This document shows, piece by piece, positions 1-44,110 of a DNA stretch of 59,525 nucleotides. Positions within the stretch are counted from its first letter, which is position 1. Each line of letters starts with the position of its first letter. Both the position numbers and the translations under genes were made by a program. Location: NCBI GenBank assembly GCA_028819575.1, contig JAPPLB010000067.1:1-59525 (forward strand), written 5' to 3'. Below the pieces are notes generated by a model that was given only the letters and a program-made list of their open reading frames with translations, ran no database searches and was not told where the DNA came from. Source of the DNA: Bryobacterales bacterium. GTDB taxonomy: Bacteria > Acidobacteriota > Terriglobia > Bryobacterales > UBA6623.

Positions 1-73
1 CGCGTAGCTCAATTGGTAGAGCAAGTGACTCTTAATCACTAGGTTCGGGGTTCGATTCCCTGCGCGCTCACCA
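1..73 (+). tRNA. tRNA-Lys(CTT), first three bases outside window
   Basis: The anticodon loop reads CTCTTAA, giving anticodon CTT for lysine. The D arm (GCTC/GAGC), anticodon stem (AGTGA/TCACT) and T arm around TTCGATT all fold. The 3' acceptor strand CGCGCTC is followed by discriminator A70 and an encoded CCA at 71-73. The matching 5' acceptor strand should be GAGCGCG; only CGCG is inside the window. This tRNA is the attachment site of the island that follows: its 3' half recurs at 44006. Confidence 0.93.
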
Positions 74-2656: not shown

Positions 2657-3007
2657 TCAGCGATATCGTTCCTGCTTCAGCTTTGCCACCGCCGTCGGCA
2701 ATATCTCGGCGATCATCTCCAGGGCATCGGCGGGATGGGTGGTCGCATAGTGTTCCAACCAACCCCTGAGTTCATCAGGGCTGGATTTAAGAACTGCAAA
2801 CCAGCGCCCGCCGGTGTTGTTAGGAAGGCCACCCTCAATCTCCCCCGCTATGAATCCATCTGCATGCCACTGAGGAACGGGTACAAGTTTACCTTCTCGG
2901 CGCATCTCCGAACGTTCATGTCTGTTGGAAAATCTATCAACCAATTCCCTCGGTTCGGCGACTATTTTGTTCGACCCTCTGGGAAGCCTCGAGAACGCGA
3001 TCTTCAT
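2657..3007 (-). CDS. Hypothetical protein, about 116 aa
   Basis: The frame reads MKIAFSRLPRGSNKIVAEPR onward and ends in a helical, Ala/Lys-rich tail (MIAEILPTAVAKLKQERYR). It is soluble and has no signal peptide or membrane segment. The ATG at 3007 follows GTGGAG at good spacing; a GTG at 3019 would add four residues. The composition is protein-like, but no family was recognised. It lies just downstream of the odd tRNA on the same strand. Confidence 0.45.
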   Translation of the reverse strand: MKIAFSRLPRGSNKIVAEPRELVDRFSNRHERSEMRREGKLVPVPQWHADGFIAGEIEGGLPNNTGGRWFAVLKSSPDELRGWLEHYATTHPADALEMIAEILPTAVAKLKQERYR

Positions 3008-3098
3008 GTTCAACTCCACACATGCCGGACACTCCTCCTAAAGGCGAGCCAAGAAGGAGCTTGACAGGATGCGGTAACATACTACGGTGCTTTAAGCA

Positions 3099-3187
3099 TG
3101 GTGCGGACGGAGGGGTTCGAACCCCCAATTCCCTATTAGGACCACGGTTTTGGAGACCGTTGCGTATGCCAATTCCGCCACGTCCGC
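3099..3187 (-). tRNA. Class II tRNA: tRNA-Leu body with CCA (Trp) anticodon
   Basis: On the minus strand: acceptor GCGGACG pairs fully with CGTCCGC; TG at 8-9; D arm GCG...CGC with loop GAATTGGCATA; anticodon stem ACGGT/ACCGT with loop CTCCAAA, so the anticodon is CCA; a 17-base variable arm that folds TCCT/GGGA; T stem GGGGG/CCCTC around TTCGAAC; discriminator A73 and encoded CCA (3101-3099). The long variable arm, A14, A15, G18G19, A20a and A73 are tRNA-Leu features. Bacterial tRNA-Trp is class I with G73. The fold is complete with no mispairs in the main stems, so this is not a decayed gene. An automatic call would probably be Trp or undetermined. Confidence 0.88.
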
Positions 3188-3452
3188 TCTTTGTCCGGGG
3201 GTGGGCCTCACACGCCCATCCCCGGCTTGCTTTTTCTCTTGACACACGGACCTGATTCGTTGGAAAATCAGAAAAGTCGGTTGTCAAGACACACCCCTCC
3301 TGGAGGCACAAAAGGTACCTACTCCGTAAAATTCTCAGTTCTGAACGGGCCGTCGATGAGTAGATCGCGGCCCGTTTCTTCATTCCCAAACTATCCGCAA
3401 AACGGGTTCTTGTCAACAGCTATTTCCACATATAGTTAGCGTCACCGACGAA

Positions 3453-6200: not shown

Positions 6201-8351
6201 TTAGCTTCCTGATTCTCTTCGATATGCGAGAGCCTTTTTGATTGTCTCCTTCATGCCTGCTGGTTTATGCCCGTCTCTCGCCATTAATCCGACTACTACG
6301 TTTCGGACTTGTATACTGCTTCCTTCTCCAGCTAGCGTCTCCGTCACTTTCTGGAGTACTCGCTTACCCGGTACCGTTCTCTTCCATCCGTCTGTGTCCC
6401 ATACCTCGGTGGAGTGTTCTCCCTCTCCCAACTTTCTCAGTTCAGTTGCCAACTCCTCCTTAGTCGTTGCCTGCGCCACGGCGAATATTGCTGCGGCGGC
6501 CTCCTTGCTTGCCACCACCAAGCTCGCCAAATCGTCCTCGGTAATCCTCCCTCCGTGTCCGGGTCTCCTCACCTTTACGTTGACTTCTCCCTTCAGCTTT
6601 CTGCGCACATACTCCACAAGTTGATTGTTGACCACCTCTTGCCACACCTCTCTCGCACAGCTTCGTAGAAGTGCCTCCACTCTCGCTACTGGGATCTCCA
6701 CAGGTCGAAGCAAGGTGATCTGCCCCACGGCTTGGGAAATATACTCCGCGTCCAATAGGTACGACTCGATGTCGTATAGATCCCATCTGAATTCTCCACG
6801 TTTCTCGCCTTCGTCCCTTCGTGTTGCTGACATGCCATCTCCGTCCGTTATCGTAACGACCTCTTTCCTGACACCTTGACTCTCTTGCATCTTCCATAGC
6901 TCGTTCTTCTTCTTTATCACTTCGTTCTTTCCGGCTATCGAAGCAACGTTAACTCCTCGCAACTCTGAGGCGAATAGCCTCATTACCATCTCCTGATCGA
7001 ACTTGCTCCCCCCTTCCACCAGAATCGTAGTTCCCTGCGGCTCGTATGTCGCGAAATCGCCGATCAGTTCCAAGCATGCTCGCTCGAACCGTTCCTCAGT
7101 GCCAACGTGCTTCATCTGGTTGAATGTGGGTTCCTGGTCTCTTGGCATATCCATGTGAAACACTTGCATTCTTCCCGATTCAAATGCTCGTCTCAGGAAC
7201 ATGTCGGAATGAGTCACTAACCACACTTGGTTCTGTAGTGCCCGTCCGATGTGTCGTTCGTACAAGTTCGGCAGCCCGGCAATCATCCTTGGGTTCATAT
7301 GAAGCTCTGGCTCGTCCACGATTATCACGGAACTCTTCGGTGCTCTAGCTCGGGTCTTAAGATAGCCGAACAGGATTTCTTTTTCACCCGAAGACAAGTC
7401 GTCGATGTCGTGCTCATTCCCTCCCGTGTTCACATTGAACTCCAGTCGCCCTTCACGTGTAGGTCGTGGTCCTGTGAAGTCCTTATCCGGAATCATATCT
7501 CTGAAGATCTCCCGCATCGCCGCAGCCATTTCTTGTGTTCCCGCGGTGTCTCCCGCTTCCTTCCTTATGATTCCTCTGATCCATTCATTGCCCAGCGCTT
7601 CCTTCACCCCTCCGTATTTTCCCTCTGTGTTGTACATAGCCGACTGCTTCCATGCTTCGTCTTGCTTTTCCACATCCACCGTTACATTCGTAAACCGTTC
7701 CGGTGGATATCGTCTATCCGCTGGGTTGAATTCAATAATTCCAAGCCGGCGAGGTTCGAACGTGCCAAATACAAAACTCAGCAGATAGTTGGCCTTCATC
7801 TCTAGTCCTCCATCCGCTCTGATGTCAAATCTCCCAGTCGTAGTTTGACTTGCCAGTTCCCGCTCGATCTCTTCTTTGATTCCCTGGACTCGTTGGAATA
7901 TCTCCCTAGCTCGTTCAGCCAATCCTGGTATAGCTCTCCAGTTTTGGAGGGACCAATTCCGTAGCCTATACTCGATTTGGTTCTCGATTCCCGGTGCAAT
8001 CATTCGAATCGCCATCACTTCAATGAGACGATGGGGATCCTCGCGCACGTATTCCTTTTCCCCGCTGGTCAGTTCGATTTCGGCCTCTACAATTGCGCGT
8101 TTCTCCTTGTTGCGCAGCACCTTCCGCGTCGCCCCCGGTCGGTTCAAGTCAACCTGCTTCTCGTCCCACCACGCGCGATCTTCGTTTTCGTTGTAGTGTC
8201 CGTACCGGCTCTTCAATAGTCGAATGCCTTCCAGTAAGCATGTCTTTCCGCATCCGTTCTTTCCAGCGATTGTGATCACGTCTTGCAGATCGGTCATGTG
8301 TATCTGCTGGATCCCTTTGAAGTTCTCTATCAGTAGTCGTCTAATCTTCAT
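6201..8351 (-). CDS. OLD-like AAA ATPase with C-terminal TOPRIM/DUF4435-type domain
   Basis: A 716-residue protein. The N-terminus MKIRRLLIENFKGIQ is typical of SMC/RecF-like ATPases. Walker A GKNGCGKT lies at 30-37, the signature DDLSSGEKEILFG near 345, and Walker B VIIVDEPELHMN near 365. The C-terminal half has ILVEG (near 460) and VVTITDGDG (near 525), the acidic pattern of a TOPRIM-like nuclease fold as in OLD proteins or DUF4435. Such proteins act as ATP-controlled nucleases in anti-phage defence. The ATG at 8351 follows AGGTGAAAGA and replaces an in-frame start 117 bases upstream. It lies downstream of DISARM on the same strand, with base composition that looks lower in GC than the neighbours, suggesting separate acquisition. 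Confidence 0.8.
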   Translation of the reverse strand: MKIRRLLIENFKGIQQIHMTDLQDVITIAGKNGCGKTCLLEGIRLLKSRYGHYNENEDRAWWDEKQVDLNRPGATRKVLRNKEKRAIVEAEIELTSGEKEYVREDPHRLIEVMAIRMIAPGIENQIEYRLRNWSLQNWRAIPGLAERAREIFQRVQGIKEEIERELASQTTTGRFDIRADGGLEMKANYLLSFVFGTFEPRRLGIIEFNPADRRYPPERFTNVTVDVEKQDEAWKQSAMYNTEGKYGGVKEALGNEWIRGIIRKEAGDTAGTQEMAAAMREIFRDMIPDKDFTGPRPTREGRLEFNVNTGGNEHDIDDLSSGEKEILFGYLKTRARAPKSSVIIVDEPELHMNPRMIAGLPNLYERHIGRALQNQVWLVTHSDMFLRRAFESGRMQVFHMDMPRDQEPTFNQMKHVGTEERFERACLELIGDFATYEPQGTTILVEGGSKFDQEMVMRLFASELRGVNVASIAGKNEVIKKKNELWKMQESQGVRKEVVTITDGDGMSATRRDEGEKRGEFRWDLYDIESYLLDAEYISQAVGQITLLRPVEIPVARVEALLRSCAREVWQEVVNNQLVEYVRRKLKGEVNVKVRRPGHGGRITEDDLASLVVASKEAAAAIFAVAQATTKEELATELRKLGEGEHSTEVWDTDGWKRTVPGKRVLQKVTETLAGEGSSIQVRNVVVGLMARDGHKPAGMKETIKKALAYRRESGS

Positions 8352-9012
8352 TCTTTCACCTGTTAGGTCACCAACTCGATACGGATCGCCGAGGTGACCA
8401 GTTGTTGCGACGCGTAACGTACTATACGCCAGAGTAGCCGATGCACGGCCGGAGTGACCGTCGAGCATGTGATTGGCAGATGGTATGGACTGTGGAATGC
8501 GCGATATGGCAGCGTGTCCGTCGCATTTGCGAACATGTGCGCCCGCGCCGATTCTGGGCGGCGCTGGCGCATGCGAGGGGCTTCATGATGCAAGCGCCTT
8601 TGAGCGAATAGCACCCAACCCGCATACCAGCATCAGAATCCGGACTGCGGAGGTAAGCTCTCGGAGGGCTTCAGCCACGAGAAGAAAATGGCCGAGAGAC
8701 TACGGATTAAAGATTCGGAAGGCTCCACCCGAGGGACCGATTCGGCGCGCTCATAGAGACGTACCGACTGTCAGCCGCGCTGCCAGCTGTTTCGGTTTCA
8801 ACCACGACTTACGTACGCTCCTCCGCGGTGGTGGATTAGGAATTCGCAGGGAAAGCCTTATTGGAACCGCGCTTGAGGATTACCCCCATCATCCAGCCTT
8901 GTCTGAACTGTTGTGATGTTTGGGAGGTTGCCTAGTGCAGTTGTTCAATCGAGTTCACCCAATACGTCTGCAACGCCTCGCCATACTTCCACCACTTCAA
9001 GAAAAGCGGTGT
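8352..9012. other. No gene recognised
   Basis: About 660 bases with no recognisable protein or RNA. A long plus-strand frame (8473-8916) has a residue mix unlike a real protein and no ribosome site. The segment separates the OLD-like gene from the DISARM locus and presumably holds the promoter of the former. Confidence 0.4.
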
Positions 9013-9409: not shown

Positions 9410-10207
9410 TCAAGTTAGCGGCAGCCGTTCCAGATAACCGTTTCGGATCAAGGACATGAAATGTTCTTCGATCCGGTGTGCGATGCCAGAAGAATCGACC
9501 AACAGACCAAGTTCGATGTTTCGTTCCTGTGCAGCTTCCGTGAAATTCGCGGAGGTTACAAGTGCCTCCAGGCCGTCAATAACCACGCACTTCGCATGCA
9601 TCGCACTATACGCCTGAGCTGCGGGTGCCAGGGACCGGGGATCGTAATAGACACGAGGCAGACGGGTCCCGGGCCACTCCTTGTCAATGAAATTCTCTGC
9701 GAAGCGCCGGACCACGTGGCTATCGATGGAGCTGTCATCTCTTTGACGACGAACATCAATACAGAGGATTACGTCGAGTAAGCCTTGCCCGTCGAGCCGA
9801 CGTGCTAAGGCTTGGAACACTGATTTTCCTTGATGGATGGCGAAGCCGACGGCTAGCACGCGCTGGCGCGCCTTCTCGAACATTTGCCTTATCACTACGC
9901 TCGTATTTCGTGCCATTAAGGTCGCGTCCGGTCCGCTGACGACGATCTCGACGGATGCGGCTGCTTTGCTCCCAGTGCTGCTACCAGCAGTGAACGCACG
10001 CAGCACCAATGCCATCTGTTCGGATGTCAATTCATATCGCGACAGATCCTCGAACCATCGGGTAATGGGTTCAACTTGAGAAACGGCTACCTGGTTTCTC
10101 AGTGTGAGAGGACCTAAAGGCGGCTTCAACAAGCCAGCTTCCAACAGCTCCGCTAGTCGGATGAGATCGTCCCGTTCAAGTTCTGATAGGGCGTGGAATT
10201 CTCTCAC
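9410..10207 (-). CDS. drmC: DISARM PLD-family protein DrmC
   Basis: A phospholipase-D-fold protein of about 265 residues, the last gene of the DISARM locus. The C-terminal HKD motif is seen as HAKCVVID followed by a TSANF serine/asparagine pair and ERNIELG. The first HKD half is degenerate, as is common in this family. The start is taken as GTG 10207, which overlaps the drmB TGA as GTGA; GTG 10216 is also possible and adds three residues. DrmC is a predicted nuclease and is reported as dispensable in tested DISARM systems. Its partners drmB and drmA lie immediately upstream. Confidence 0.85.
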   Translation of the reverse strand: MREFHALSELERDDLIRLAELLEAGLLKPPLGPLTLRNQVAVSQVEPITRWFEDLSRYELTSEQMALVLRAFTAGSSTGSKAAASVEIVVSGPDATLMARNTSVVIRQMFEKARQRVLAVGFAIHQGKSVFQALARRLDGQGLLDVILCIDVRRQRDDSSIDSHVVRRFAENFIDKEWPGTRLPRVYYDPRSLAPAAQAYSAMHAKCVVIDGLEALVTSANFTEAAQERNIELGLLVDSSGIAHRIEEHFMSLIRNGYLERLPLT

Positions 10208-12012
10208 GGGCCGCACCCGGCTGGATCAAAGAATTCGGCGTCCTCGTCGCTGACTGTTGGAACGACCAGCGCACGATCGAGGAAGTCATTGCGCTGCTCG
10301 CAGCTCGTCTCCGCAATCAGAAGGCAGCCGTGGCAAGCGGCGCCCTGCAACATGCGACCCTCAAGCGTAGAATCCGGCGAATGCTCCGCACAGACCGGGT
10401 CATTCGAGCACAGTAGGCCAGCATCCAAAGCACGGCGAAGATACTCGTGAAGATGTCGGCCTGTCTCGACCAGCCCGCCTAGAGTTCCTTCCGAGTCGGA
10501 TGACCCCGTATAGATCAGTATTCCGTAGCCACTGTCACCCGCGTAGACACGTTCTCGTAGCGAGCTCGCCGGATAGCCGCAATCAAGCGCGATTGACATC
10601 ATCAGCATGTGAGAGAGTGAATGCAGCATCACATAGGGAAGTCCGGGGAAGCCCTCTACCGGACGCTGACGCTCCTTGGCCCATGCCTTCCAGCCGGATT
10701 CGATTCTCCGCCCGCGTGCGATTACACCCGGACGGATCAGCCATTGCTTGACCTGGTCCTGTTTGAAAGAAATGAACACCCCCTCGCCGCGATTCTCGAA
10801 CGCAGGCAGCCAGTTAATCGTTTCAGCGAGCGAAGCCCGCACGACATCGAGATCGAGTTCGCCATCCTTGTCCGGGCTGATCGCCTCGAATCGCGTGAAA
10901 CCGAGCAAGGATACGACCTCGCGCAAGCGGTGTACCAGCACGAGCTTGTCGACCAGTTTGAGGAGATCGTCACCCCCCAGATCCCATGATCCTCGCTCGG
11001 GTGTCTCAGCATAGAACTTGGACCGCGAGTCATCCTCGCCGATGCGGGGATCTCCTTTGTCAAGTATTTCGAACTCGGCAGTCTTGACCGCAATGTTCTC
11101 GCTCTCACCGCCGTCTTTCTGCCGTTGGTACTCGACCATTACTGCCTCATCGGAGATTTCTGCGAAAACGGCATCGAGCTCTGGGATCATTCGAAAATTG
11201 CCGAGAACCCCCAGGTCGTCGGCGGCCTTCAGGCGCTCGAAATGGATCGAAACCTTCGCAGCCAAAGCGGTATCGAATTCTGGCAGGGAAATGACGCTCA
11301 TCGTCTGCGGGAAATAGGCGTTGCTCGCCGTGCGCACAAGTAGCCGATAAGGCTCCCCGCATGCTTCTCGCGCATATTGTCCAATCCACGGTCGCTTTCC
11401 TTCACAGTGTCCGAGTGCACCAGTGTCAGGGCTCGACGCTTCGTATAGCGAGCGTTCCTCACCGCATTCGCACACGCCGAAAGTGTCTCCGATGTCGCTG
11501 CCGGTTCCGCGTTCCTCGAGCCACAGTGGCCGCTCGCAGCTCTTGCCGCTTTGATGAACAAATGTTCTCCAGTCCAGATCATCGATGTGGCCACGCCGAC
11601 AGCCGCAGACGAAACGTACAGGGACAACCGGCTTGTGTTCCCCACCCTCGTCGCGGAAGCGGTGGCGATCCAGATGAACCCACCGCACCAGCCTGCGACG
11701 GCGCCATTGTGGATTCCGGGGGGCAGGCCTTGCGTCTTTGACGATAAACCAGGTCGGGAAGATACGCGCACCGACCGGGGCCGCTTGCCGAACGCTTTCC
11801 TCGTGTCGAGGGGGAGTGTAAAGGTCCAGCGCGGGTACGGACAACAACCTCCGCAACTTGGCCTGTAGGCGTGGTTCGTGGATCTTCTCGCGTCGCAGAT
11901 GAGACCAGTCTTGCAAGCCTGAAACGATCACCGAATGATCGGGTAGATCGATCATCGCGCCTGGACCATAGGTCGTGACCAACTGGCTCTGGCGAAGGAT
12001 ATTGTCGCTCAT
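10204..12012 (-). CDS. drmB: DISARM protein DrmB (DUF1998)
   Basis: A 602-residue protein opening MSDNILRQSQLVTTYGPGAM, the conserved DrmB N-terminus. A cysteine-rich segment (CGCRRGHIDDLDW, then CECGEE) and a C-terminal DUF1998 region follow, with HSLSHMLMMSIALDCGYP, GILIYTGSSDSEGTLGGLV and the zinc-like CSNDPVC...GAACHGC cysteines. DrmB forms a complex with DrmA that loads on single-stranded/5'-overhang DNA. It starts 8 bases after drmA and ends inside the drmC start, so translation is coupled. Confidence 0.9.
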   Translation of the reverse strand: MSDNILRQSQLVTTYGPGAMIDLPDHSVIVSGLQDWSHLRREKIHEPRLQAKLRRLLSVPALDLYTPPRHEESVRQAAPVGARIFPTWFIVKDARPAPRNPQWRRRRLVRWVHLDRHRFRDEGGEHKPVVPVRFVCGCRRGHIDDLDWRTFVHQSGKSCERPLWLEERGTGSDIGDTFGVCECGEERSLYEASSPDTGALGHCEGKRPWIGQYAREACGEPYRLLVRTASNAYFPQTMSVISLPEFDTALAAKVSIHFERLKAADDLGVLGNFRMIPELDAVFAEISDEAVMVEYQRQKDGGESENIAVKTAEFEILDKGDPRIGEDDSRSKFYAETPERGSWDLGGDDLLKLVDKLVLVHRLREVVSLLGFTRFEAISPDKDGELDLDVVRASLAETINWLPAFENRGEGVFISFKQDQVKQWLIRPGVIARGRRIESGWKAWAKERQRPVEGFPGLPYVMLHSLSHMLMMSIALDCGYPASSLRERVYAGDSGYGILIYTGSSDSEGTLGGLVETGRHLHEYLRRALDAGLLCSNDPVCAEHSPDSTLEGRMLQGAACHGCLLIAETSCEQRNDFLDRALVVPTVSDEDAEFFDPAGCGP

Positions 12013-12020
12013 CGAATGAT

Positions 12021-15000
12021 TTATGCGAGGTCCTGCCCCTCGGGCGTCTTGATTCCGAGCAGCACACTCGGCTCTACGTCACGTAGCGAACGCGGCGCAC
12101 GGAAAAGAAGCTGGGTGTCGGTCAACGTGTCTCGATTGGGGTCGATCATCTCACGCAGTAACGGAGCCGAAACCTTGCTCTCTCGGCCCAGAGAGTACCC
12201 GAACGTCACGCCCCCACGTTGGGCCTCATGGGAAAGCGTCGCCCAATCGTCGATAAGGCTTCGAACGCGGTCCTTGACGTTATCACCGAAGTCAGCCGGC
12301 AAACCTTTCACGTGGCCCTGAGCACGGGCACCCACCGACTCGGCCAGCTCCTTCGTCTTGTCGCCATGGTCTTCGATATTTTTTGCGGCGAGCATGGGTG
12401 TGAGTTCCGAGATCCCGAGACGCGCAAGTGCAACGGTGACCGCAGAAAGTCCGCGATCCATGGCGCGCGCCGAGAACGGAGTGACGCTGGTCGCTTCGAC
12501 GCCGCGGTAGAACGAGTCATGATAGGTGGCGAACCGTTCGTAGTGGGAGCGGTCGCGCGGCTTGTGGACGTTCAACAGGGTTACCACGAGGCCGGGCCTC
12601 GAGGCATCACGTCCGACTCTGCTGGTGGCTTGGATGTACTCCGCAGTCATCTTGGGTTGGCCTGCAACGACCATCAGGCCGAGCCGAGTAATGTCTAGCC
12701 CCACGGAGATCATGTTGGTGGCCAACGCAACATCGACATGTTCGTCTTCGTGAAAGCCCAGGGCGAGGCAACGCTTGGCATCAGCGACATTCGCGGTTCC
12801 GACGCGCGAGGTCAGCTCGACCGGCTCGAACGCGATTCGCCGGTCAGCGAACAGGCCGCTCGATTCATCCAAACGCTTGCGGCCCGCATAGGTCAACAAT
12901 CGCGACCCGATCTCGTCTTCAACGATGCGTCGAGCGCTTCCCAGTTCTCGCAAGGCATTGAAATACGTAACCGCAGTCATGTAGGGATCGGCCGGGTTTG
13001 GACTTGTGCCCTTGGAGGCAGCATTCCAAGCCGCCTGTGCTGCCGCCATCAGCGTGATCATGCTTCGCAAGAAGACGACCTTCGGTCCGCGCCCCTGTGC
13101 GGCGAGACCGAGATAAAGGCGCGCGTCAACCTCTTCTTCCGGGGCTTGCCTCGCAAAGAACGAGTCCCGGCGGTCGATCCCGGGCGGGGGGAACACTTCC
13201 ACCAAAGGTCGATCGAATAGAGCGCGGATTTGTTTTTGGGCAAGGCGTACGGTCGCTGTCGAAGCGACGACTTTCGGGCGCACATCCCTGTCACCGATCC
13301 GGCGTCTGCACAGGTGATCAATCGCAGTCTCGTAGAGCCCCGCCATGGTGCCGAGCGGTCCCGAGATCAAGTGCAGCTCGTCCTGGATAATCAGATCGGG
13401 CGGTCTCGCATCCTCCGGGTCACCGCCTCTGAAAAACCGCGCCGTTTCGCCGCTCCACGGCAAGGCCGCGAACTTGTCGGCGGTTGCGATCATGAACGCC
13501 GGCAGGCGGCGGTAGATTGGCTCGTCCACCGCGACGATCGGCAGGTGACGCTTTCTTCCCGAGAATTGACAATGCCGGTTTGCGCATCGCACCAACAGGT
13601 CGGTCGGTTCGTTTGAATTCGGATGAAGACGGAACGAATGCCGGTTGAATTTCGTGCCGCACCAGGGACATTGATCCAGCGGCAAGGGAGGGTCGCGCGA
13701 GGTATCTCGGGCGAACCGCAGGGTCTTGGCTCGCGCCGTGTCGTTCGACCGATCACCCTTTCGGCCCATATAGTTGGGCGTAGCGGCACGTCCAACCCAC
13801 AGAGCGATTTCAAACGGCCATTCTCCCAGTTTCCTGGATGCCGCCTCACGCTCGAGTTCAAGTGCGCAGACGAGCGCCGCGGCACGCCCGAGCTGGTCGA
13901 GGGTAAGGAGCCGTAATGTATAGCGCATTAACACGGACAGTCCGCGATAGGTGGGATCGGGTTCACGCAGTCGTCGCAGAACAAGGGTGAACGCAGCAAG
14001 CCCGAGATAGGCTTCCGTCTTTCCGCCGCCGGTGGGAAAGAACAGCAAGTCGACCATTTCGCGCTCGACATGAGTGGGCTCGGCGATACCCCGCAGGTTC
14101 ATGAGGATGTAGGCAAGCTGGAAGGGACGCCAAGCTGGCGGGCTCACCGCTTCCGGTTTGCGGCTCTCTTCCTGCGCACGCCGCCGCCGCGCCGCCGCCG
14201 CCATCGCTCGGTTGGCAATACGAAACGCCTCCAGAACATCGGGTTCGGCAAGCAGGTCGATCCCGGTCTGGATACGGTCCGCTGTGCGAACAGCGCGCAC
14301 CGTCAATTCGTCGGCGACCTCTCGGCGCCGACCGCCAAGTCCCCCGGCACTGACACGCTGTCCGACAATCCAGTCGCGGTATTGGCGGACTAGGGGCTCC
14401 AGCAAATCCTTCGCGGCGTGGGCGTCTGAGAGAGCGCCCAGCGCCTCCATGCCAAATTCGACGTCGGCAATGCTGGACGGCTCCACACGCTCCACGGAGG
14501 CCCGAGGCATCCATTCCGTATGCACGCGGAGACAGCCGCTATCGATCACATCGTCCCGCGTCGATACGTTGTGGCCGACCGAGTAGTCCGCGACGTCACG
14601 ATAATGCAGATCGGCCAAGCGCTCGTCCCAATCCTCACTGTCGAAACCGCTCGGGTCGAATCTCGGGACAAGGGGCCGATCCACCTCCACGCTCATCGCG
14701 AGCTGAAAAGCGAAGGCGGTGTCCTGCAGTTCGTTGTCCTTGGCAGGAGGGCGGCGATTCACGATAAACACCGACACCGCGCGCACGTTCCTGATTCCAG
14801 CGGCCGTCTTGATCCTAGTCGGGCGTAGCAAAGAGACCACCTTCAGACCGTCGCTGCCAGGAACGTCGAAGGAAACCGGGGTTCCGATCTTGACGGATGA
14901 GAGATTGATGCTGATGGCTTCTGAACGCGGTCGACGAACCCATGGCAGGAAGCGCAAGCGGAAAGAGTCGTTGTCCACACTGCCGCTGCCTTGTGGTCCT

Positions 15001-15416
15001 TCGCTCTGGGCGCGATGGGTCGTTCCCTTGTCACCTGGTACGTAATCGCCCCATGACACCGTTACCTCGAGACTGGTTGTCTCCTCATCCACAAGGATGC
15101 TCAGCCCCATCGACGATGGCAGAAAGACGCGTTTGCCGCTACCGCGATCGGGAGTGGTCGAATCGTCGCCGCCTTGAATCGGTTCGGCCGGCTCGTCGAG
15201 CTCCTCTTCGGCGTCCTGGGTTCGTTGCTCGTCCGGCGCACCGGTCGGCACCAGAAACCCCGTCAAATACCAACGCGACGGAGCTTGCGGAAGACGTTCA
15301 TGCTGGAGGGCCTAATCTCCAGGACTGGGGCCGATCAGATCAAGCCGCAGCGCCTCGATCAGATAGCGACGGACAGAGACACTGTCGTTCAAGGGTGGAG
15401 CGGCTGGCGAGTTCAT
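12021..15416 (-). CDS. drmA: DISARM helicase DrmA, in-frame amber at codon 35
   Basis: An SF2 helicase. Walker A lies within FFPTGGGKTEAYLGL, the DEAH-like box is IIQDELHLISGPLG, ATATVRLAQKQI is motif III-like, and the C-terminal helicase motifs are LATNMISVGLDITRLG and EYIQATSRVGR. The ATG at 15416 overlaps the drmMI stop as ATGA and reads NSPAAPPLNDSVSVRRYLIE, matching the DrmA N-terminus, but codon 35 is TAG (15314-15312). The frame then continues ALQHERLPQAPSRWYLTGFL without a break to 12021. From TTG 15266 the uninterrupted part is 1081 residues. Either the gene restarts internally without the first 50 residues, or the amber is suppressed, or the protein is lost. A sequencing error is also possible. 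Confidence 0.85.
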
Positions 15417-18400
15417 GAAGCTGCATTCACCCTACGGGGAGTTGACCCAGCGTCTCCTTCGGCCATGCGTTCCTCGGCCGCTCGCTCTGCATTCAGAGCC
15501 AACAGGCGCGCAAGCACCTCATCGCAAACCTCATCGCGCCAGCGGTAGCGCCAGGGTTTCTTCCGGTTGCCCCAGGTCTCAGGGTCGATTTCGAAGTCGA
15601 GCAGGAATTCACATTCGGTGGAGATATCGCACCAGCCGTAGGCATCGAGAACGGCGCGGTCCATGGCGGCATGAAGCTCTCGGAGCCTCGTGATCCGCGG
15701 GTCGCGCTCACCGGGGTCGTGGAAGCGGTTGTAGGTCTTGGTCATTCCCTCATCATTCTCGACCATCAGCGACGCGCGGTAATCGAAGTAGGCCGCTCCG
15801 GCTTCTTCAAGGGTGGGATGCCTCTCCCAGGATTCGGGGAAGGGGTAGGTTTCGAAGCAGTCGGAGAGAGAGTAATTAAGACGGTCTTCGAGCGTTGAAC
15901 TAAAGAAGCGAGCCCAGATTTCGTGGGGGCGGGATTGGAGGGAGCAGAAGGCAGCATGAGTAGAAAGAGCAAATACATTTTGGCCGGCATATACCATACC
16001 TTTCGGCAAAAAGGTGAACTGGAGATGTTGGCATATGTAGGCATGAAACAACACCCGATCCAGTCCGGCGATCGTCGAGTGGAGTTCTGGACGGGGGCGA
16101 ATGAACTGCCACCATTTCTCTTTCGCACCTGAGTCTTTTTTGTTCAGCCTCTCCGTTTTCACTTTCGTTCCAACTATTTCGAGCAAGTCCGGCCAGTCCG
16201 CCGCCACCGGCTCTGGATAATCCAGGGGTACGATACCCTCCCGAAGCCATTCCCGGCGTTGATCTTCGTCGGCTTCCCGCCACCGTTCGTCCATACTCTC
16301 CCGGCGCAGTGGGTAGTTCCAGAAGTTGATGACGTATCGGTGATGGGCATGGGTCGGGCTGGAATTGACCTCATCGCCGCCGATATACGGGAAGATCACC
16401 ACCTGATTGCGCGGGTTCTCTTCGATCAGGCGGTGCATTTCCGCTAGCGGTGTGGCGACGCCCTTATTGTCGGTGTCATCGAAGGTGAAGCCCATGCCGA
16501 GGACAATGCTTCCCTGGAAGCTCTTGTGCTCGTTCGCGGTAAGCCGCGCCGGATCGTCGTGGCCGCCGCCCTGGGAGAGAAACGCTGAGATGCTCCCTAC
16601 TTCTCGGTTGTCGAGAGCCTTTCTGCCTATACAAGATCCCTTGGAGATGTGAACCACGCTCACCACGACCGCCGCCTCACCCGGCCATTGTATGCGGCGG
16701 TCGGCTCGGTAGATCTCACCGCCGTTCTTGCAAATCCATCGCAACCCGGTCGAACGGGTATCATCCTGTGCGATGGTGTTGGTGGCGATGAGGCCGAGCG
16801 CGCCTCCCTCTCGCAGCAGTCCAAAAGCACGGCGGAAGAAATGAGCCACAAGATCCGCGTTTCCGTGACTCCCGGCATGAACTTTCTTGAGCCAGTCGGG
16901 GTAGCTGGCGGCATTCGCGGCGATGACGGTGTTCTTACCTGCAAAGGGCGGATTGCCGATGACTGCATCGAAACCCGGGCTCTCGCGCTCGAACACCTCC
17001 GGGAACTCCAACTCCCAATGGAAGGGCGCGATTTGTGGATCTGTGGACGCTAGCGAGGCGTTCACACGTCCATCATTCTCCAGAAACAGATCCCTGTACT
17101 CAAGGCGTCTTCTCTCGCGCTCCTTCGGCTTTCTTGACTCGAAGAATGCTGCCAGCACCAGATCGGCGATCCAGCAGACACCTCTGAGCTCGTTTTCTGT
17201 CTGTTCCAGGAGTTCCCGAAGTTCCTGCTCGGGCATCTCCTCGCCGAGCTCGCGGATCAGTTGACGCAGCTCAAGCGCCCGCGCCACCCGGCTGCGCACC
17301 TGCATCGACTCCAGTCCCATCTGAAAGCGCGGTGCATCGGCATCCCAATGGAATCCCTCAATCTGGCGGCAGGTCAAACCGACCAGCGAATCACCGTGAC
17401 GCAATGCATGGTCAATGAAGGTGAACTCATGATCCTTTGCGAGTGTGGCCAGCCAGAGCGACAACCGTGCCAGATCAATGGCCATTGGGTTCTTGTCCAC
17501 GCCATAGAGGCATCGCTGAGCTACAAGGCGTTGGGCGTGAAGCAGCTCGTCCTCGTCGGAAGGCAGGTCAGTTGGGCCGCCGTGAATGCTCCAGGCTTCA
17601 ACCAACCGCGAGGACAATTGGCGGCACGCCTCGACCAGAAAGGCACCCGAACCGGTCGCCGGATCGAGGACCTTGAGGTCGAGGATGTCACCGGGTCGCG
17701 CATCCGGCCCCAGACGATCGAGGAGCGGACGCAAGGCTTCGGAAACGATCGGCTCGGTCAAGGAGCGCGGCGTGTAGTGACTGCCGGACCGCCGCCGCTC
17801 GTCGGTCGGCTGAAGGACGGGCGTTCCCTCGGGCAAGATGTCCGGTGTCACATCTCGGTCGACGGCTGAATCAAGGGCAGCAACGACATCAGCGGGGATC
17901 AATGCCGAGCGGAGCTTTGCCGCTGCCTTGCCCGTCAGTCTCCGGTTCGTGGCGTCCTGCAGGGCTTTCGCACGCTTTCCGCCTTCCAGTTCCAGTAAGC
18001 CGTCGAGGTCGATAACGACTGCCGCACCGGAACGCTTCGAGGAGGTCACAGCAATCGACCGGCCCGTCGTCAACTCGACACGGAAACCCATGATCGACTC
18101 ATAGACCGAACCGATCTGCTCGACATCGAGAGTGCGGTACGACAGCCGCTCGCCGTCCAGCATCATCAGGCTTTGCAGTACCTTCCAGACCGTTGCATCG
18201 GGCACCATGGGGACCGCACCCTTGCCCACGAGCCCCCGCCCTTCGAGGAACGGGAATCGATCGGGGTCGAATAGCGCGCCCTGACGGGCGACAAACCTGA
18301 ATCCGGCGTGGCCACCGCCACGGTGGATCAGCCGGAACAGCGACAGGAGCTGTGCCCAAGCGCCGAAACGCTGATCCATGGTGTCGGGCCAGGCCGATAC

Positions 18401-19372
18401 GTCGGAGCGCAGTCGGGCGAACAGGCCGCCCAGCGAATAGTACTGCTGGTAGACGGGATGATCGGGCATCAGGCCGCGATCTTCCGCGTAGAGCACGAAA
18501 ACCAGCCGCATCAGCGCTGTGATCAATCCACCGTAGAGATGATCCGGGTTGCATCGCGCCAATTCAGTCACAGTCCCGCCTTGACGGACATCCGCCGTGA
18601 CAAAGCCCCGCATCAATTCATGGAGTGCGGCCAGTACCTGCCTCGATAGCCGTGTCGAGACCTCGACTTGAGCCTCTCGGCTCTTGGCGAGCAGTATCGG
18701 CAGGCGCTCTTGAGGGGCGCCCTGGAACAGCATGTCCGCCGAGAGAAGCATCTCGAAGGCAGCCAGGATGGGACGTCCCGCCGGCAGCGCCATCTGGGAA
18801 AACTCAAATGTCATGTACCCCGACGACTCGCCCTTGGGAGCGTAGACCAGACGGACTCGCTCGTCGGTGCACAGCAGGCCAATCGGGATTCCGGTCTCGC
18901 GCAGCAGCCGTTCGAAGCGGGAGTGACGAGTCGCGTTCCACCCGTCCCTCTCAGCAGGCGTTTTGTCGAAATCCGCACCGTTCTCCTCAACGCGAATGAG
19001 CATCGTCCATTCCGAGCCCGTATCGTCGTCCGCCGGCACTGCCCAGGTCGGCGAGAGAACGACCTGCAACTCGGGTAGTGCGATCTCTAGCGAGCCGCGG
19101 TGTGCAGCCGTCTCCACAAGATCGCTTTTCTCCCAACCGAGATAGTTCAGAAACACTCGAAGCAGGTCGGGCGAACGCCAGCGGGCCGTGGCACCATTCC
19201 GTTCTTCTATGAGCAACTCTCGAAACTCTCGCTGCCGACCGGAAACGTTGCGGTTCGGGACGACCTGAACGTCGACCATCACCGTCGGTGAGACGACGAG
19301 GCCCACCGGCTGGACGAAACCGAGCCACTCCTGATGGGCAAAGATCAGGTTGCTTCGTTCGCGATCCGCCAT
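15413..19372 (-). CDS. drmMI: DISARM class 1 adenine methyltransferase DrmMI
   Basis: A 1319-residue N6-adenine methyltransferase in the type IIG/BREX PglX-like style. The SAM motif LDPATGSGAFLVEAC and the catalytic VIGNPPFAGKN (NPPF) lie in the middle third. The long N-terminal part carries DUF-type helical sequence with ERLPILLAKSREAQVEVS, and the C-terminal part is a likely target-recognition region (YVINFWNYPLRRES). In class 1 DISARM this enzyme marks host DNA so that the system spares it. It begins 3 bases after drmD and overlaps drmA by 4 bases, consistent with a single transcript. Confidence 0.9.
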   Translation of the reverse strand: MADRERSNLIFAHQEWLGFVQPVGLVVSPTVMVDVQVVPNRNVSGRQREFRELLIEERNGATARWRSPDLLRVFLNYLGWEKSDLVETAAHRGSLEIALPELQVVLSPTWAVPADDDTGSEWTMLIRVEENGADFDKTPAERDGWNATRHSRFERLLRETGIPIGLLCTDERVRLVYAPKGESSGYMTFEFSQMALPAGRPILAAFEMLLSADMLFQGAPQERLPILLAKSREAQVEVSTRLSRQVLAALHELMRGFVTADVRQGGTVTELARCNPDHLYGGLITALMRLVFVLYAEDRGLMPDHPVYQQYYSLGGLFARLRSDVSAWPDTMDQRFGAWAQLLSLFRLIHRGGGHAGFRFVARQGALFDPDRFPFLEGRGLVGKGAVPMVPDATVWKVLQSLMMLDGERLSYRTLDVEQIGSVYESIMGFRVELTTGRSIAVTSSKRSGAAVVIDLDGLLELEGGKRAKALQDATNRRLTGKAAAKLRSALIPADVVAALDSAVDRDVTPDILPEGTPVLQPTDERRRSGSHYTPRSLTEPIVSEALRPLLDRLGPDARPGDILDLKVLDPATGSGAFLVEACRQLSSRLVEAWSIHGGPTDLPSDEDELLHAQRLVAQRCLYGVDKNPMAIDLARLSLWLATLAKDHEFTFIDHALRHGDSLVGLTCRQIEGFHWDADAPRFQMGLESMQVRSRVARALELRQLIRELGEEMPEQELRELLEQTENELRGVCWIADLVLAAFFESRKPKERERRRLEYRDLFLENDGRVNASLASTDPQIAPFHWELEFPEVFERESPGFDAVIGNPPFAGKNTVIAANAASYPDWLKKVHAGSHGNADLVAHFFRRAFGLLREGGALGLIATNTIAQDDTRSTGLRWICKNGGEIYRADRRIQWPGEAAVVVSVVHISKGSCIGRKALDNREVGSISAFLSQGGGHDDPARLTANEHKSFQGSIVLGMGFTFDDTDNKGVATPLAEMHRLIEENPRNQVVIFPYIGGDEVNSSPTHAHHRYVINFWNYPLRRESMDERWREADEDQRREWLREGIVPLDYPEPVAADWPDLLEIVGTKVKTERLNKKDSGAKEKWWQFIRPRPELHSTIAGLDRVLFHAYICQHLQFTFLPKGMVYAGQNVFALSTHAAFCSLQSRPHEIWARFFSSTLEDRLNYSLSDCFETYPFPESWERHPTLEEAGAAYFDYRASLMVENDEGMTKTYNRFHDPGERDPRITRLRELHAAMDRAVLDAYGWCDISTECEFLLDFEIDPETWGNRKKPWRYRWRDEVCDEVLARLLALNAERAAEERMAEGDAGSTPRRVNAAS

Positions 19373-19375
19373 GGC

Positions 19376-22300
19376 CTATCCCGTGCGCGGCCAGAGATAC
19401 ACTAGGCCCAGCGGATCTACCCGAACGGCCCTGACCGTATAGGTTTCGGCGATCCGCTTCGGCTCGGTCTCGAGCTCAGTCTCGATGCTTAATAGACGCC
19501 GTGCCCAGGCGCGGCGGTCGGCTTCTCGCTGACGCTGTTCGACGGGATCGAAGTCCAGCGTCATTTGACTGTCCTGTTGACTGCTGGCCTCCAAGATCCT
19601 TTTTCGCTGGCGCTGCAGCAATTCAGTCATGCTCCGGCCTTCCACTTCCGCCCGCTCGGCAAGACGTTTCTTCACCCGTTCAGTAAGCTCGGCAGCACGA
19701 CTCTTCAGATGCGGCAGCAAATCCGCGATATCGGCCTGCGCCGCCGTCGCTAGTCGGGCCTGGACTTGATCCGGAACGCGCTCTCGTCCGGCCTCGTCAA
19801 GCGCTGTCTGTAGAGAAGCCAAGGTCGTCTGTTCTCCACTTCGGCCATATGGGGTAAGCACGCCTTGTCGCCGCACGGGCTCAATCCAACGGGCAGCCAC
19901 AGGCAAGATCTCTTCATGCAGTCGCGCAGCGCGAGGTCCGTAGACGGCGAGCCGGCCAATCAGAACAACGCGTGGGATAGCTTCCGGAACCACCGTCAGA
20001 CAGGCTTTGGACAGGTCGTGATGGATCAAACCCTGCGAGGTGAATCGTCCGAGCAGGCGCCGGGTCACTCGATGCTCGAGGTGAAGTTGTACGACGTTAT
20101 CTCCGGACCGGCCGGTATCCTCGAACGCGACGGGGCGGATGATAGCGCGGCGGCGCCATTCGCTGAATGTCTCTCCGCGCCGCTTGCGATCGCGCAGCGT
20201 ATCGAGAGCCGCAGCCCAGCCTGGGTCGCGGGTCACAGCATCGTTGTCTGAGAGTAAGGTAAAGCGGCGTGGGATGCCCGGCTCTCGTTCTTCGCCAGGA
20301 TTCATCTCCACAAGCTCGGAAACACCGGCGAGACGCAGGCTCATCGACAACGTCTGCCGGAACTGAGGCGCAGAAATGCCGATACGCTTACAGGAACGTT
20401 CCAACCGAGTCCGAAGACCGTCGATGTCCTCCTGCAGTTTGTCCTGTCTGAGACGCGATTCTTCTAGCTCTTCCTCGATGGTCTGTTGTTTCTCGCTGTC
20501 CGATAAGTCCCGGATGAAGGCAGTCATCTCGTCGATTCTGTCACGTCTCATGCCTTCCTTTTCGATACTGCTGGCCACTCGGCCTTCGAGAACCTTTGCC
20601 ACGCTGCCAAGTTCTTCCCGAACACGTTCGGCCTTCTTGACCAACACCTTCAGAACACGGTCCTCGGGCCGTTGAACAAAAACGAAGTAGCGGCAAAAAA
20701 CTTCTTGTGCCGGTTGCAGCTTGCGGTCGATGCGCCCGTTGCGCTGATCCAGTCGGCTCGGGTTCCAGGGCAGATCGAAGTGGAACAAATCACGACAATG
20801 CCGTTGAAGGTTGAGGCCCTCGCGCGCGGCGTCGGTAGCGATGAGAATGCGTATCGGGTGGTCTTTCGGCTCGGTGTTGAAGGCATGCTTGATATCCTCT
20901 CGCTTCTGCCTTGACGTAAGCCCGGTGAAGGTGGCAATCCGTTCGGATGCCCTGTCTGTATATGCGATCGCCTCGCTCAGGCATCGTTGGATAAACCGGC
21001 GTGTATCCTCGTATTCGGTGAAGATGATGAGGCGACGGTCGTTCCAGCGCGAGGGCGTACCTTCTTGCGCGGAGAGTCCAGTACACATATTGACCTCGAT
21101 CCACTCGACGATCTTTCGAATGCGCGGATCGGCTTCGTAGCGGCTGGCCTCAGCAATTTCGCGCATCTCATCAACAAGATCGAGTTCGCGCATCAGCGCT
21201 TTCTGCGCTCCCGTTCGGCTAGCATCACTGGATGCCGTCGTCGCCCGAGCCATCAGGTCGGTGAGTTCGAGTTCGGTCTGATCGGATCGTTCCCAGTCGT
21301 CCGAAGCACTGTCTTCGCCTTCAAGATCGGCCTCATCTTCAATCGTTTCGGCGACTGCACCGTAGGGCTCCTCACCAGCAGTAAATTGTTCGGGAGCGGT
21401 GCCCAGAGCACCTGTCAACTCTTCAACCTTTCGGGCTCTCTGCAGAGCCCGCTCGACGCTCTTCCGATGTACCGCGAGCGTTTTCGCGAAGGCCTCTATG
21501 GATGACAACAGGCGTTTCTGCAGCCCTCCAATCACCAGTGCGCCAGCCGCCTGCCGCGAACGTGATTCGTCCTTGAGCCGTTTTTCTCGCTCAAGACGGT
21601 AGGAATCCAGCTTCATCGGAAGTACCAGCTCAGGAGCGTCTGGATGCAGTCCATCGATATCGACCTGGACTACGGTGCGCTTCGGGAATCCACCTTCAAG
21701 TTGCCGGATATCCGACTTCAACCTGCGTACCAGAATCTCATCTAGCTGACCTTTGCGCACCCGCACGCCGCGGCAGAAGCGTTGCGGGTCAAGTATTTCG
21801 AGCAGAGCGGAGAAGCTGTTGGAATGTCCGTTATGCGGTGTTGCCGACAGGAACAGGCGATGCTCGAAACGAGGCGCAATGTCGCGAACGGCGCGCGTGA
21901 TCTGCGAATCGACCGCGTAGCGTGCGCCGCTCGCTGGCGCGGCGTTGTGCGCCTCATCAAGGATCAACAGGGATTGCGGAGCGAACTCGCCAAGCCAGTC
22001 GCGCAGCCCCGAAGCGTAGGCCTCATCGATGAGCAGACGGTGCGAAACCAGAAAGCGGGAATTCGTCGTCCAGGGGTTGACCGAGAATCCGCGCTCGCGG
22101 CGCATTCTTGTAACGTAGTTGCGGTCCAGGATCGTGAAGGTGAGCCCAAAACGCGTTTCCATTTCATCCAGCCATTGTTCCAGCATCGAGGGTGGACAGG
22201 CGACCACGATGCGATCGATGCGGCGCCGCAATAGCAATTCACGCGCAATGAGACCCGCCTCGATAGTCTTCCCGACGCCGACGTCGTCCGCAATAAATAG

Positions 22301-22690
22301 ATTGACTCGCGGGAGACGTAGCGCCTTGCGCAAAGGATCGAGTTGGTAAGCATCAATGCGGATGCCAGCACGGAACGGCGCCTGAAACAGATTTGGGTCA
22401 GTCGCCGTCAAGCAGTTCCATGACAGAGTCCGCAGATAGGCAGCGAACAGCTCTGGATCGTCGAAACCCTTCTCGGCGACCGCAGACCAACCGTCATCTT
22501 CGAGCACACAGGCATCGAGTTCGTGCTCCCACAATACTGACAGTGATTCACCCTGAGCGTCGTCATCCAGACAAGAGAGGTCAACAAGCGTCGCTTCAGT
22601 AGACGACGAAGGAGCCGTGACGTTCTCAACCAGATAGCGGCGCTGCCGAACCAATGCAATCTGGCCCGGTTCGGGGCAGGGCGCAGTCAT
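19376..22690 (-). CDS. drmD: DISARM class 1 SNF2-like helicase DrmD
   Basis: A 1104-residue SNF2-type helicase and the first gene of the locus. Motif I is ADDVGVGKTIEAGLIA, the DEAH box is LLILDEAHN, motif III is LFLSATPHNGHS, and the second RecA lobe is seen as IIFTEYEDTRRFI, LIATDAAREGLNLQ and NPSRLDQRNGRIDR. The presence of drmD together with drmMI, in the order drmD-drmMI-drmA-drmB-drmC, defines class 1 DISARM. A coiled-coil-rich C-terminal third (LEESRLRQDKLQED, AELTERVKKRLAER) follows. The ATG at 22690 begins MTAPCPEPGQIALVRQRRYL, the usual DrmD start. Confidence 0.9.
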   Translation of the reverse strand: MTAPCPEPGQIALVRQRRYLVENVTAPSSSTEATLVDLSCLDDDAQGESLSVLWEHELDACVLEDDGWSAVAEKGFDDPELFAAYLRTLSWNCLTATDPNLFQAPFRAGIRIDAYQLDPLRKALRLPRVNLFIADDVGVGKTIEAGLIARELLLRRRIDRIVVACPPSMLEQWLDEMETRFGLTFTILDRNYVTRMRRERGFSVNPWTTNSRFLVSHRLLIDEAYASGLRDWLGEFAPQSLLILDEAHNAAPASGARYAVDSQITRAVRDIAPRFEHRLFLSATPHNGHSNSFSALLEILDPQRFCRGVRVRKGQLDEILVRRLKSDIRQLEGGFPKRTVVQVDIDGLHPDAPELVLPMKLDSYRLEREKRLKDESRSRQAAGALVIGGLQKRLLSSIEAFAKTLAVHRKSVERALQRARKVEELTGALGTAPEQFTAGEEPYGAVAETIEDEADLEGEDSASDDWERSDQTELELTDLMARATTASSDASRTGAQKALMRELDLVDEMREIAEASRYEADPRIRKIVEWIEVNMCTGLSAQEGTPSRWNDRRLIIFTEYEDTRRFIQRCLSEAIAYTDRASERIATFTGLTSRQKREDIKHAFNTEPKDHPIRILIATDAAREGLNLQRHCRDLFHFDLPWNPSRLDQRNGRIDRKLQPAQEVFCRYFVFVQRPEDRVLKVLVKKAERVREELGSVAKVLEGRVASSIEKEGMRRDRIDEMTAFIRDLSDSEKQQTIEEELEESRLRQDKLQEDIDGLRTRLERSCKRIGISAPQFRQTLSMSLRLAGVSELVEMNPGEEREPGIPRRFTLLSDNDAVTRDPGWAAALDTLRDRKRRGETFSEWRRRAIIRPVAFEDTGRSGDNVVQLHLEHRVTRRLLGRFTSQGLIHHDLSKACLTVVPEAIPRVVLIGRLAVYGPRAARLHEEILPVAARWIEPVRRQGVLTPYGRSGEQTTLASLQTALDEAGRERVPDQVQARLATAAQADIADLLPHLKSRAAELTERVKKRLAERAEVEGRSMTELLQRQRKRILEASSQQDSQMTLDFDPVEQRQREADRRAWARRLLSIETELETEPKRIAETYTVRAVRVDPLGLVYLWPRTG

Positions 22691-44005: not shown

Positions 44006-44110
44006 ACTCTTAATCACTAGGTTCGGGGTTCGATTGCCTGCGCGCTCACCATTTCTTTTCAACAACTTACGGCATGAACGTCCTTGCCGACATCATGCTC
44101 GTGTCAGCAC
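44006..44110 (+). repeat. Right attachment-site repeat (degenerate tRNA-Lys 3' half)
   Basis: ACTCTTAATCACTAGGTTCG onward repeats the tRNA-Lys sequence 28-57 exactly. A C-to-G change at 44036 would break a T-stem pair, so this is not a second tRNA. The match goes on past the CCA through TTCAACAACTTAC and TTGCCGA to about 44110. It marks the right end of the island; core-type genes begin at 44283. The 44111-44282 gap has no gene. Confidence 0.85.

What the first reader, a model, noticed from the sequence alone, without database searches (positions are those of the whole stretch)
3099..3187. tRNA-Leu body carrying a tryptophan anticodon on a mobile island
All stems pair perfectly and the CCA end is encoded, yet the anticodon is CCA in a class II tRNA with A73, A14, A15, G18G19 and A20a. 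Bacterial LeuRS largely ignores the anticodon and relies on A73 and the D-arm tertiary fold, while TrpRS needs G73 and a class I body. The predicted outcome is leucine at UGG codons. It could be deliberate mistranslation (for example of phage proteins), a decoy for anticodon-cutting toxins, or a vestige. A similar tRNA may already be in surveys of unusual class II tRNAs; I cannot check.
Basis: partly seen in the sequence, partly recalled or inferred. Interest (0 to 1): 0.78.

Follow-up and report, generated by a model that had tools for sequence, protein, structure and literature searches.

The report
Leucine tRNA with tryptophan anticodon, island-borne
A mobile bacterial DNA island that also carries antivirus genes encodes an intact transfer RNA that looks built to be loaded with leucine but reads the tryptophan codon; similar tRNAs recur as extras in scattered bacteria and a phage, so it is a candidate for deliberate miscoding, though nothing shows yet that it is made or used.

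Summary
At 3187-3099 (-) lies an intact 89-nt class II tRNA (ARAGORN; Rfam tRNA 54.8 bits) with anticodon CCA, A73, A14, A15-U48, G18G19, A20a, a long variable arm and encoded CCA. The host also has a normal class I tRNA-Trp(CCA) with G73, all five Leu isoacceptors, and one LeuRS and one TrpRS. The gene is cargo of a 44-kb integrative island (46-bp att repeats made from tRNA-Lys(CUU), P4-type integrase) carrying class 1 DISARM and a fused PARIS protein (AriAB). No orthologue was found in 256 genomes of the same order. A pattern scan of about 85,000 species genomes and 2.9 million viral contigs found nine more Leu-body CCA tRNAs; seven of their genomes were shown to have an ordinary tRNA-Trp too. 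All ten keep A73 and U48, which the search did not require, pair 99.5% of stem cells with many compensatory changes, and use a Trp-like U31-A39 closing pair found in only 8/108 Leu(CAA) bodies. So this is neither a sequencing error nor a decayed Leu(CAA). Best reading: a leucine-accepting, UGG-reading missense tRNA carried by mobile elements. Charging, expression and benefit are inferred. A PARIS link and a dedicated synthetase were tested and not supported. New variant of a known kind.

The parts
3099..3187 (-). class II tRNA gene: Leu-type body (A73, A14, A15-U48, G18G19, A20a, long variable arm), anticodon CCA, CCA end encoded
3151..3153 (-). anticodon CCA (C34 C35 A36) in loop CUCCAAA, closed by U31-A39
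3102..3102 (-). discriminator A73 (Leu-type; bacterial Trp needs G73)
   Evidence: identity table PMC9976931
3282..3287 (-). TTGACA of a weak promoter-like site (17-nt spacer, TCCAAC) about 100 nt upstream of the mature 5' end; function unproven
   Evidence: score 9; 5 of 200 shuffles reach 9; no site on this strand
3195..3225 (+). 12-bp hairpin followed by a T run on the + strand: terminator-like for + transcripts, lies in the 5' leader of the tRNA
1..73 (+). tRNA-Lys(CUU), 5' end cut by the contig end; 28-73 is attL of the island
44006..44051 (+). attR, 46-bp copy of the tRNA-Lys 3' part with one mismatch
42671..43843 (-). P4-type tyrosine integrase next to attR
6201..8468 (-). fused AriAB (PARIS) defence protein on the same island
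   Evidence: PADLOC PDLC02981, E 1e-126, 691 of 694 profile positions
9410..22690 (-). class 1 DISARM: drmC, drmB, drmA, drmMI, drmD

Best explanation
This is a functional tRNA gene carried as cargo on a 44-kb integrative defence island. Shown: it folds as an intact class II tRNA with the complete bacterial leucine identity set and a tryptophan anticodon embedded in a Trp-type anticodon arm; the host keeps a normal tRNA-Trp and one LeuRS; nine scattered relatives keep the same combination, and seven of their genomes were shown to have a normal tRNA-Trp as well. Inferred: the host LeuRS, which does not read the anticodon, charges it with leucine, and it then competes with Trp-tRNA at UGG, giving a low, dose-dependent Trp-to-Leu substitution. 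It is the missense counterpart of the Leu-body amber and ochre suppressor-like tRNAs seen in viral contigs. Its persistence on mobile elements suggests that it is conditionally expressed, or tolerated because it is weak. The beneficiary (island, host or phage) is unknown.
For: Intact tRNA by two programs. Leu identity elements present, and G73, A1-U72, G2-C71, G5-C68 and A9 of Trp absent. One LeuRS and one TrpRS in the host, so no dedicated synthetase is present. Ten members: 99.5% of 200 stem cells pair and 14 of 20 pairs have changes on both sides. A73 in 10/10 although the search pattern did not cover position 73, against G73 in 12/12 class II GUU (Asn-anticodon) tRNAs with the same D arm. 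U31-A39 in 10/10 versus 8/108 Leu(CAA) bodies, Fisher p 4e-10. Canonical tRNA-Trp also present in seven of the relatives' genomes. Leu-body CUA and UUA suppressor-like tRNAs with A73 in viral contigs.
Against: No expression, charging or proteomic data. The promoter is weak, and a hairpin sits between it and the tRNA. No orthologue in 256 genomes of the order, so there is no direct test of selection on this copy. Island proteins use Trp normally (1.8% versus 1.3% in the flanking chromosomal genes), so strong constitutive misreading is unlikely. The collections were scanned with one strict pattern, and the shared CCA and Leu D arm are by selection of that pattern.
Confidence: 0.6

Rival explanations
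1. Silent passenger: a tRNA of a phage or mobile element that was recombined or mutated in its anticodon and is not, or hardly, expressed; harmless because it is silent.
For: Single copy in one genome of the order; poor -10 sequence and a leader hairpin; the island holds IS and integrase remnants close to it; Leu-body tRNAs with assorted non-Leu anticodons recur in viral contigs.
Against: All stems and invariant positions intact; ten members keep A73, U48, U31-A39 and pairing across wide divergence.
Confidence: 0.18
2. Decoy or replacement RNA that protects tRNA-Trp function, or blunts a tRNA-cutting toxin, by presenting a Trp-type anticodon arm on another body.
For: Anticodon arm shares a 15-nt core with the host tRNA-Trp arm; the island and several relatives' neighbourhoods hold defence genes: AriAB and DISARM here, Cas3 next to L052, type I restriction next to L055, a Cas2/VapD-like protein next to L054.
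Against: AriAB homologues in one genome of the class and on two plasmids have no comparable tRNA nearby; the C40-A41 cut site of E. coli AriB (PMC12409363) is absent; four of the nine relatives have no evident defence neighbour; the Trp-type closing pair is also what decoding of UGG would require.
Confidence: 0.1
3. A true class II tRNA-Trp charged by TrpRS, a duplicate of normal function.
For: C34C35A36 is the strongest Trp determinant, and G3-C70 and G4-C69 are present.
Against: A73 instead of G73, G1-C72 instead of A1-U72, C2-G71 instead of G2-C71, A5-U68 instead of G5-C68, G9 instead of A9; A73 kept in all ten members, whereas class II GUU tRNAs of phages have G73, the base AsnRS requires; canonical tRNA-Trp present alongside.
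Confidence: 0.06
4. A non-ribosomal source of Leu-tRNA (for example for an aminoacyl-tRNA transferase) whose anticodon merely keeps it out of Leu decoding.
For: Leu identity is retained while Leu decoding is abolished.
Against: No aminoacyl-tRNA-dependent transferase was recognised among the island genes searched; the anticodon arm looks tuned for UGG decoding.
Confidence: 0.04

Closest known systems
Allo-tRNAs (Mukai et al. 2017, as reviewed in PMC7609411)
   Same: Naturally occurring bacterial tRNAs with the identity of one amino acid and the anticodons of others; found in Acidobacteria among other groups; some associated with transposon-related sequence.
   Different: Allo-tRNAs have 8/4 or 9/3 acceptor domains and Ser (some Ala) identity; this one has the ordinary 7/5 cloverleaf and Leu identity.
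tRNA-ProX with ProRSx of Streptomyces (as reviewed in PMC11415595)
   Same: Hybrid tRNA whose body specifies one amino acid and whose anticodon specifies another; accessory; proposed for mistranslation.
   Different: ProX comes with a dedicated ProRSx, A34 and A33; here there is no synthetase paralogue and the anticodon loop is normal.
Leu-body amber and ochre suppressor-like tRNAs in viral contigs
   Same: Leu D arm, long variable arm and A73 with a changed anticodon (CUA, UUA), U31-A39 closing pair.
   Different: They read stop codons, whereas this reads the sense codon UGG.
tRNAs with isotype prediction disagreement ('hybrid' tRNAs; tRNAscan-SE 2.0, PMC8450103)
   Same: Anticodon and body models disagree; candidate code-breakers.
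   Different: That paper is a detection tool; the passages read describe no Leu/Trp class on mobile elements.

Membership tests
Bacterial tRNA-Leu (LeuRS substrate) | A73, A20a, large variable region, tertiary set including A14 and A15-U48 | tested here: met
Bacterial tRNA-Leu (LeuRS substrate) | Leu anticodon (NAG, UAA or CAA) | tested here: not met
   anticodon CCA; not an element for LeuRS recognition
Bacterial tRNA-Leu (LeuRS substrate) | Charged with Leu by LeuRS | not testable with these tools
   needs aminoacylation assay
Bacterial tRNA-Trp | G73, A1-U72, G2-C71, A9, class I variable loop | tested here: not met
   A73, G1-C72, C2-G71, G9, long variable arm
Bacterial tRNA-Trp | C34C35A36 | tested here: met
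Allo-tRNA | 12-bp acceptor domain as 8/4 or 9/3 | tested here: not met
   7/5 acceptor and T stems
tRNA-ProX / ProRSx | dedicated synthetase isoform | tested here: not met
   single LeuRS and single TrpRS in the genome
Hybrid-identity (isotype-mismatch) tRNA | Body and anticodon specify different amino acids in an intact tRNA | tested here: met
Component of the PARIS system | Conserved linkage of the tRNA gene with AriA/AriB | tested here: not met
   no comparable tRNA near AriAB homologues L200, L236, L237

The most novel reading that the evidence does not exclude
Mobile defence islands and phages carry a class of leucine-charged, UGG-reading tRNAs that mistranslate Trp as Leu on purpose when expressed during infection or stress, damaging newly made proteins of an invader or diversifying the proteome, as the missense counterpart of phage stop-codon suppressor tRNAs.
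Probability: 0.2. Interest if true: 0.85.

Novelty: new variant of a known kind. Interest (0 to 1): 0.55.

Why it matters
Hybrid-identity tRNAs known so far in bacteria are mainly Ser/Ala allo-tRNAs and the tRNA-ProX family. A recurring class with full Leu identity, a Trp-type anticodon arm and no special synthetase would be the simplest natural missense translation device: one RNA gene, moved horizontally, changes what a sense codon means in proportion to its expression. It can be tested directly in E. coli, because LeuRS and TrpRS identity rules and UGG reporters are well worked out.

Tried and rejected
1) PARIS-tRNA module: AriAB homologues checked; ARAGORN reported a tRNA-His(atg) beside the one in G548, but Rfam did not confirm it, and plasmids H1 and H2 have none; no homologue in viral contigs. 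2) Dedicated LeuRS or TrpRS paralogue: none. 3) Partner protein downstream (116-120 aa, 2657-3019 -): no Pfam, PHROG, genome-paralogue or plasmid match. 4) Neighbours shared among relatives: L046 and L054 neighbours unrelated; the only shared piece is a C-terminal domain of nucleases in the two Saccharibacteria. 5) tRNA as attachment site: its 3' end occurs once in the window; the att repeat is the tRNA-Lys 3' part. 6) Copying of the anticodon arm from the host tRNA-Trp: close here, but in both Saccharibacteria the arm differs from their own tRNA-Trp. 7) Pseudomonas phage Milchi hit (92% over 37 nt) is an ordinary class I tRNA-Trp. 8) Pattern hits L045 and L050 have no tRNA; L051 is a Leu(CAA) with an extra C and an 8-nt loop, excluded. 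9) L368 was fetched from the wrong contig and not used. 10) Mukai et al. 2017 and Schuntermann et al. 2023 are not held in the library, so I could not check whether a Leu/Trp hybrid is listed there.

Full report
WHAT IS THERE. The minus strand at 3187-3099 encodes GCGGACGTGGCGGAATTGGCATACGCAACGGTCTCCAAAACCGTGGTCCTAATAGGGAATTGGGGGTTCGAACCCCTCCGTCCGCACCA. ARAGORN and Rfam both call it a tRNA. The acceptor, D and anticodon stems are fully Watson-Crick paired; the T stem has one G-U (and direct reading). The anticodon is CCA, the discriminator is A73, and the CCA end is encoded.

HOST BACKGROUND. The genome (5.37 Mb, 200 contigs, 98.7% complete) has a normal 74-nt tRNA-Trp(CCA) with G73 and five Leu isoacceptors, CAA, CAG, GAG, UAA and UAG. 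It has one LeuRS and one TrpRS. The odd tRNA is therefore an extra and has no synthetase of its own.

IDENTITY. According to the table in PMC9976931, bacterial LeuRS uses A73, A20a, the large variable region and tertiary interactions, with nothing in the anticodon; TrpRS uses G73, A1-U72, G2-C71, G3-C70, G4-C69, G5-C68, A9 and CCA. This tRNA has the whole Leu set. Of the Trp set it has only the anticodon, G3-C70 and G4-C69. Charging by LeuRS is thus inferred, not shown.

WHERE IT SITS. The contig begins inside tRNA-Lys(CUU). A 46-bp copy of the 3' part of that tRNA, with one mismatch, lies at 44006-44051, next to a P4-type integrase at 42671-43843. The 44 kb between are an integrative island with a fused AriAB PARIS protein, a complete class 1 DISARM (drmC, B, A, MI, D), a CAP12/Pycsar-type TIR protein, a MobA/ArdC relaxase-like protein and IS remnants. 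The odd tRNA is cargo 3 kb inside attL. It has no orthologue in 256 genomes of the same order, and no homologue at usable identity in phage or plasmid collections beyond ordinary Leu tRNAs and similar accessory tRNAs (plasmid hits H37 and H38 were not resolved to anticodon level).

RELATIVES. I scanned genome contigs (84,980 species) and viral contigs with a pattern that covers only the Leu D arm and a CCA anticodon loop (about 0.4 chance matches expected in the genomes by my own estimate). It found eight true tRNAs in genomes (Parcubacteria L046; Nomurabacteria L047 and L049; an unnamed 0.9-Mb genome L048/L367; Rhodopirellula sp. SM50 L052; Saccharibacteria L053 and L055; Hyphomonadaceae L054) and one in a tailed-phage contig, L043. 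L051 has an 8-nt loop and is a Leu(CAA) with an inserted C. Canonical class I tRNA-Trp was found in seven of these genomes as well: G257, G258, G259, G260, G262, G263 and G265. For Hyphomonadaceae it was not found, and the virus contig cannot tell.

EVIDENCE FOR SELECTION AS A TRNA. In the ten-sequence alignment, 99.5% of 200 stem cells pair and 14 of 20 pairs have changes on both sides; 0 of 500 shuffles reach the paired fraction or the covariation score. Two features the search pattern did not cover are invariant: A73 and U48. By contrast, twelve class II tRNAs with the same D arm but a GUU anticodon from viral contigs all have G73, the base AsnRS requires, so a class II body that changes identity does change position 73. 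The CCA group has not. The closing pair of the anticodon arm is U31-A39 in 10/10, as in tRNA-Trp, against 8 of 108 Leu(CAA) bodies from viral contigs (p 4e-10). The sequences are related, so this p-value is indicative only. It speaks against a single-base error or a decayed Leu(CAA), and for an arm tuned to, or taken from, a CCA-type decoder. In our genome the arm shares a 15-nt core with the host tRNA-Trp; in the Saccharibacteria it does not match their own tRNA-Trp, so simple copying is not the general origin.

CONTEXT OF RELATIVES. L052 lies directly after a Cas3 gene; L055 next to a type I restriction operon; L053 next to a resolvase and a NucS-like nuclease beside tRNA-Lys(CUU); L054 next to a Cas2/VapD-like protein; L043 within tail genes. 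L046, L047, L048 and L049 show ordinary neighbours. This suggests mobile and defence neighbourhoods but is too small for a test.

WHAT WAS TESTED AND FAILED. AriAB homologues have no such tRNA nearby. There is no synthetase paralogue. The downstream 116-120 aa ORF has no homologue. Trp is not avoided in island genes (1.8% versus 1.3%), so UGG is not reassigned and constitutive strong misreading is unlikely. The promoter is weak: TTGACA-17-TCCAAC at about -100, reached by 5 of 200 shuffles, with a hairpin between it and the tRNA.

MECHANISM. Most likely LeuRS charges it and the Leu-tRNA competes at UGG, a missense suppressor by design of its parts. Steps shown: sequence, fold, identity elements, co-existence with tRNA-Trp, island, relatives. 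Steps inferred: transcription, charging, decoding, any benefit.

NOVELTY. Hybrid-identity tRNAs are a known kind (allo-tRNA and tRNA-ProX, reviewed in PMC7609411 and PMC11415595; isotype-disagreement 'hybrid' tRNAs in PMC8450103). I found no description of a Leu-identity/Trp-anticodon class in the papers held, but Mukai et al. 2017, cited for 'diverse mismatched identities', could not be read. Hence: new variant of a known kind.

Noticed in passing
window 9410-22690: Complete class 1 DISARM (drmC, drmB, drmA, drmMI, drmD) next to a fused AriAB PARIS gene (6201-8468) on one integrative island.
   Followed up: partly
window 28-73 and 44006-44051: 46-bp att repeat (one mismatch) from tRNA-Lys(CUU) defines the 44-kb island exactly.
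   Followed up: yes
window 3195-3225: Strong 12-bp hairpin plus T run on the + strand just upstream of the tRNA 5' end, as if terminating an antisense transcript across the tRNA.
   Followed up: no
window 23999-24838: CAP12/Pycsar-type TIR-domain protein, possible further defence effector on the island.
   Followed up: no
L081, L087, L102, L103, L125, L128, L135, L159, L161, L170, L172, L185: Class II tRNAs with a Leu-type D arm, GUU anticodon and G73 in viral contigs, apparently converted to Asn identity; an annotated example is in Caulobacter phage CcrColossus (L390:1495-1583).
   Followed up: partly
L158:9328-9413 and 9548-9635; L198:1494-1578: Leu-body tRNAs with Gly anticodons (ACC, GCC), two side by side on a viral contig and one in a Saccharibacteria-order genome.
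   Followed up: no
L112, L145, L107, L140, L187: Leu-body tRNAs with CUA or UUA anticodons and A73 in viral contigs: suppressor-like.
   Followed up: no
L051:2038-2125: Burkholderiaceae Leu tRNA with an 8-nt anticodon loop (CUCCAAAA): frameshift-suppressor-like, or an assembly error.
   Followed up: no
L382, L385 (Rhodopirellula sp. SM50): Two dense tRNA arrays with many short or odd tRNAs, including a second unusual tRNA-Trp(CCA).
   Followed up: no
L049:1-2581: Nomurabacteria 23S rRNA with a long insertion, a homing-endonuclease-like ORF and a group I intron match, 470 nt from a Leu-body CCA tRNA.
   Followed up: no
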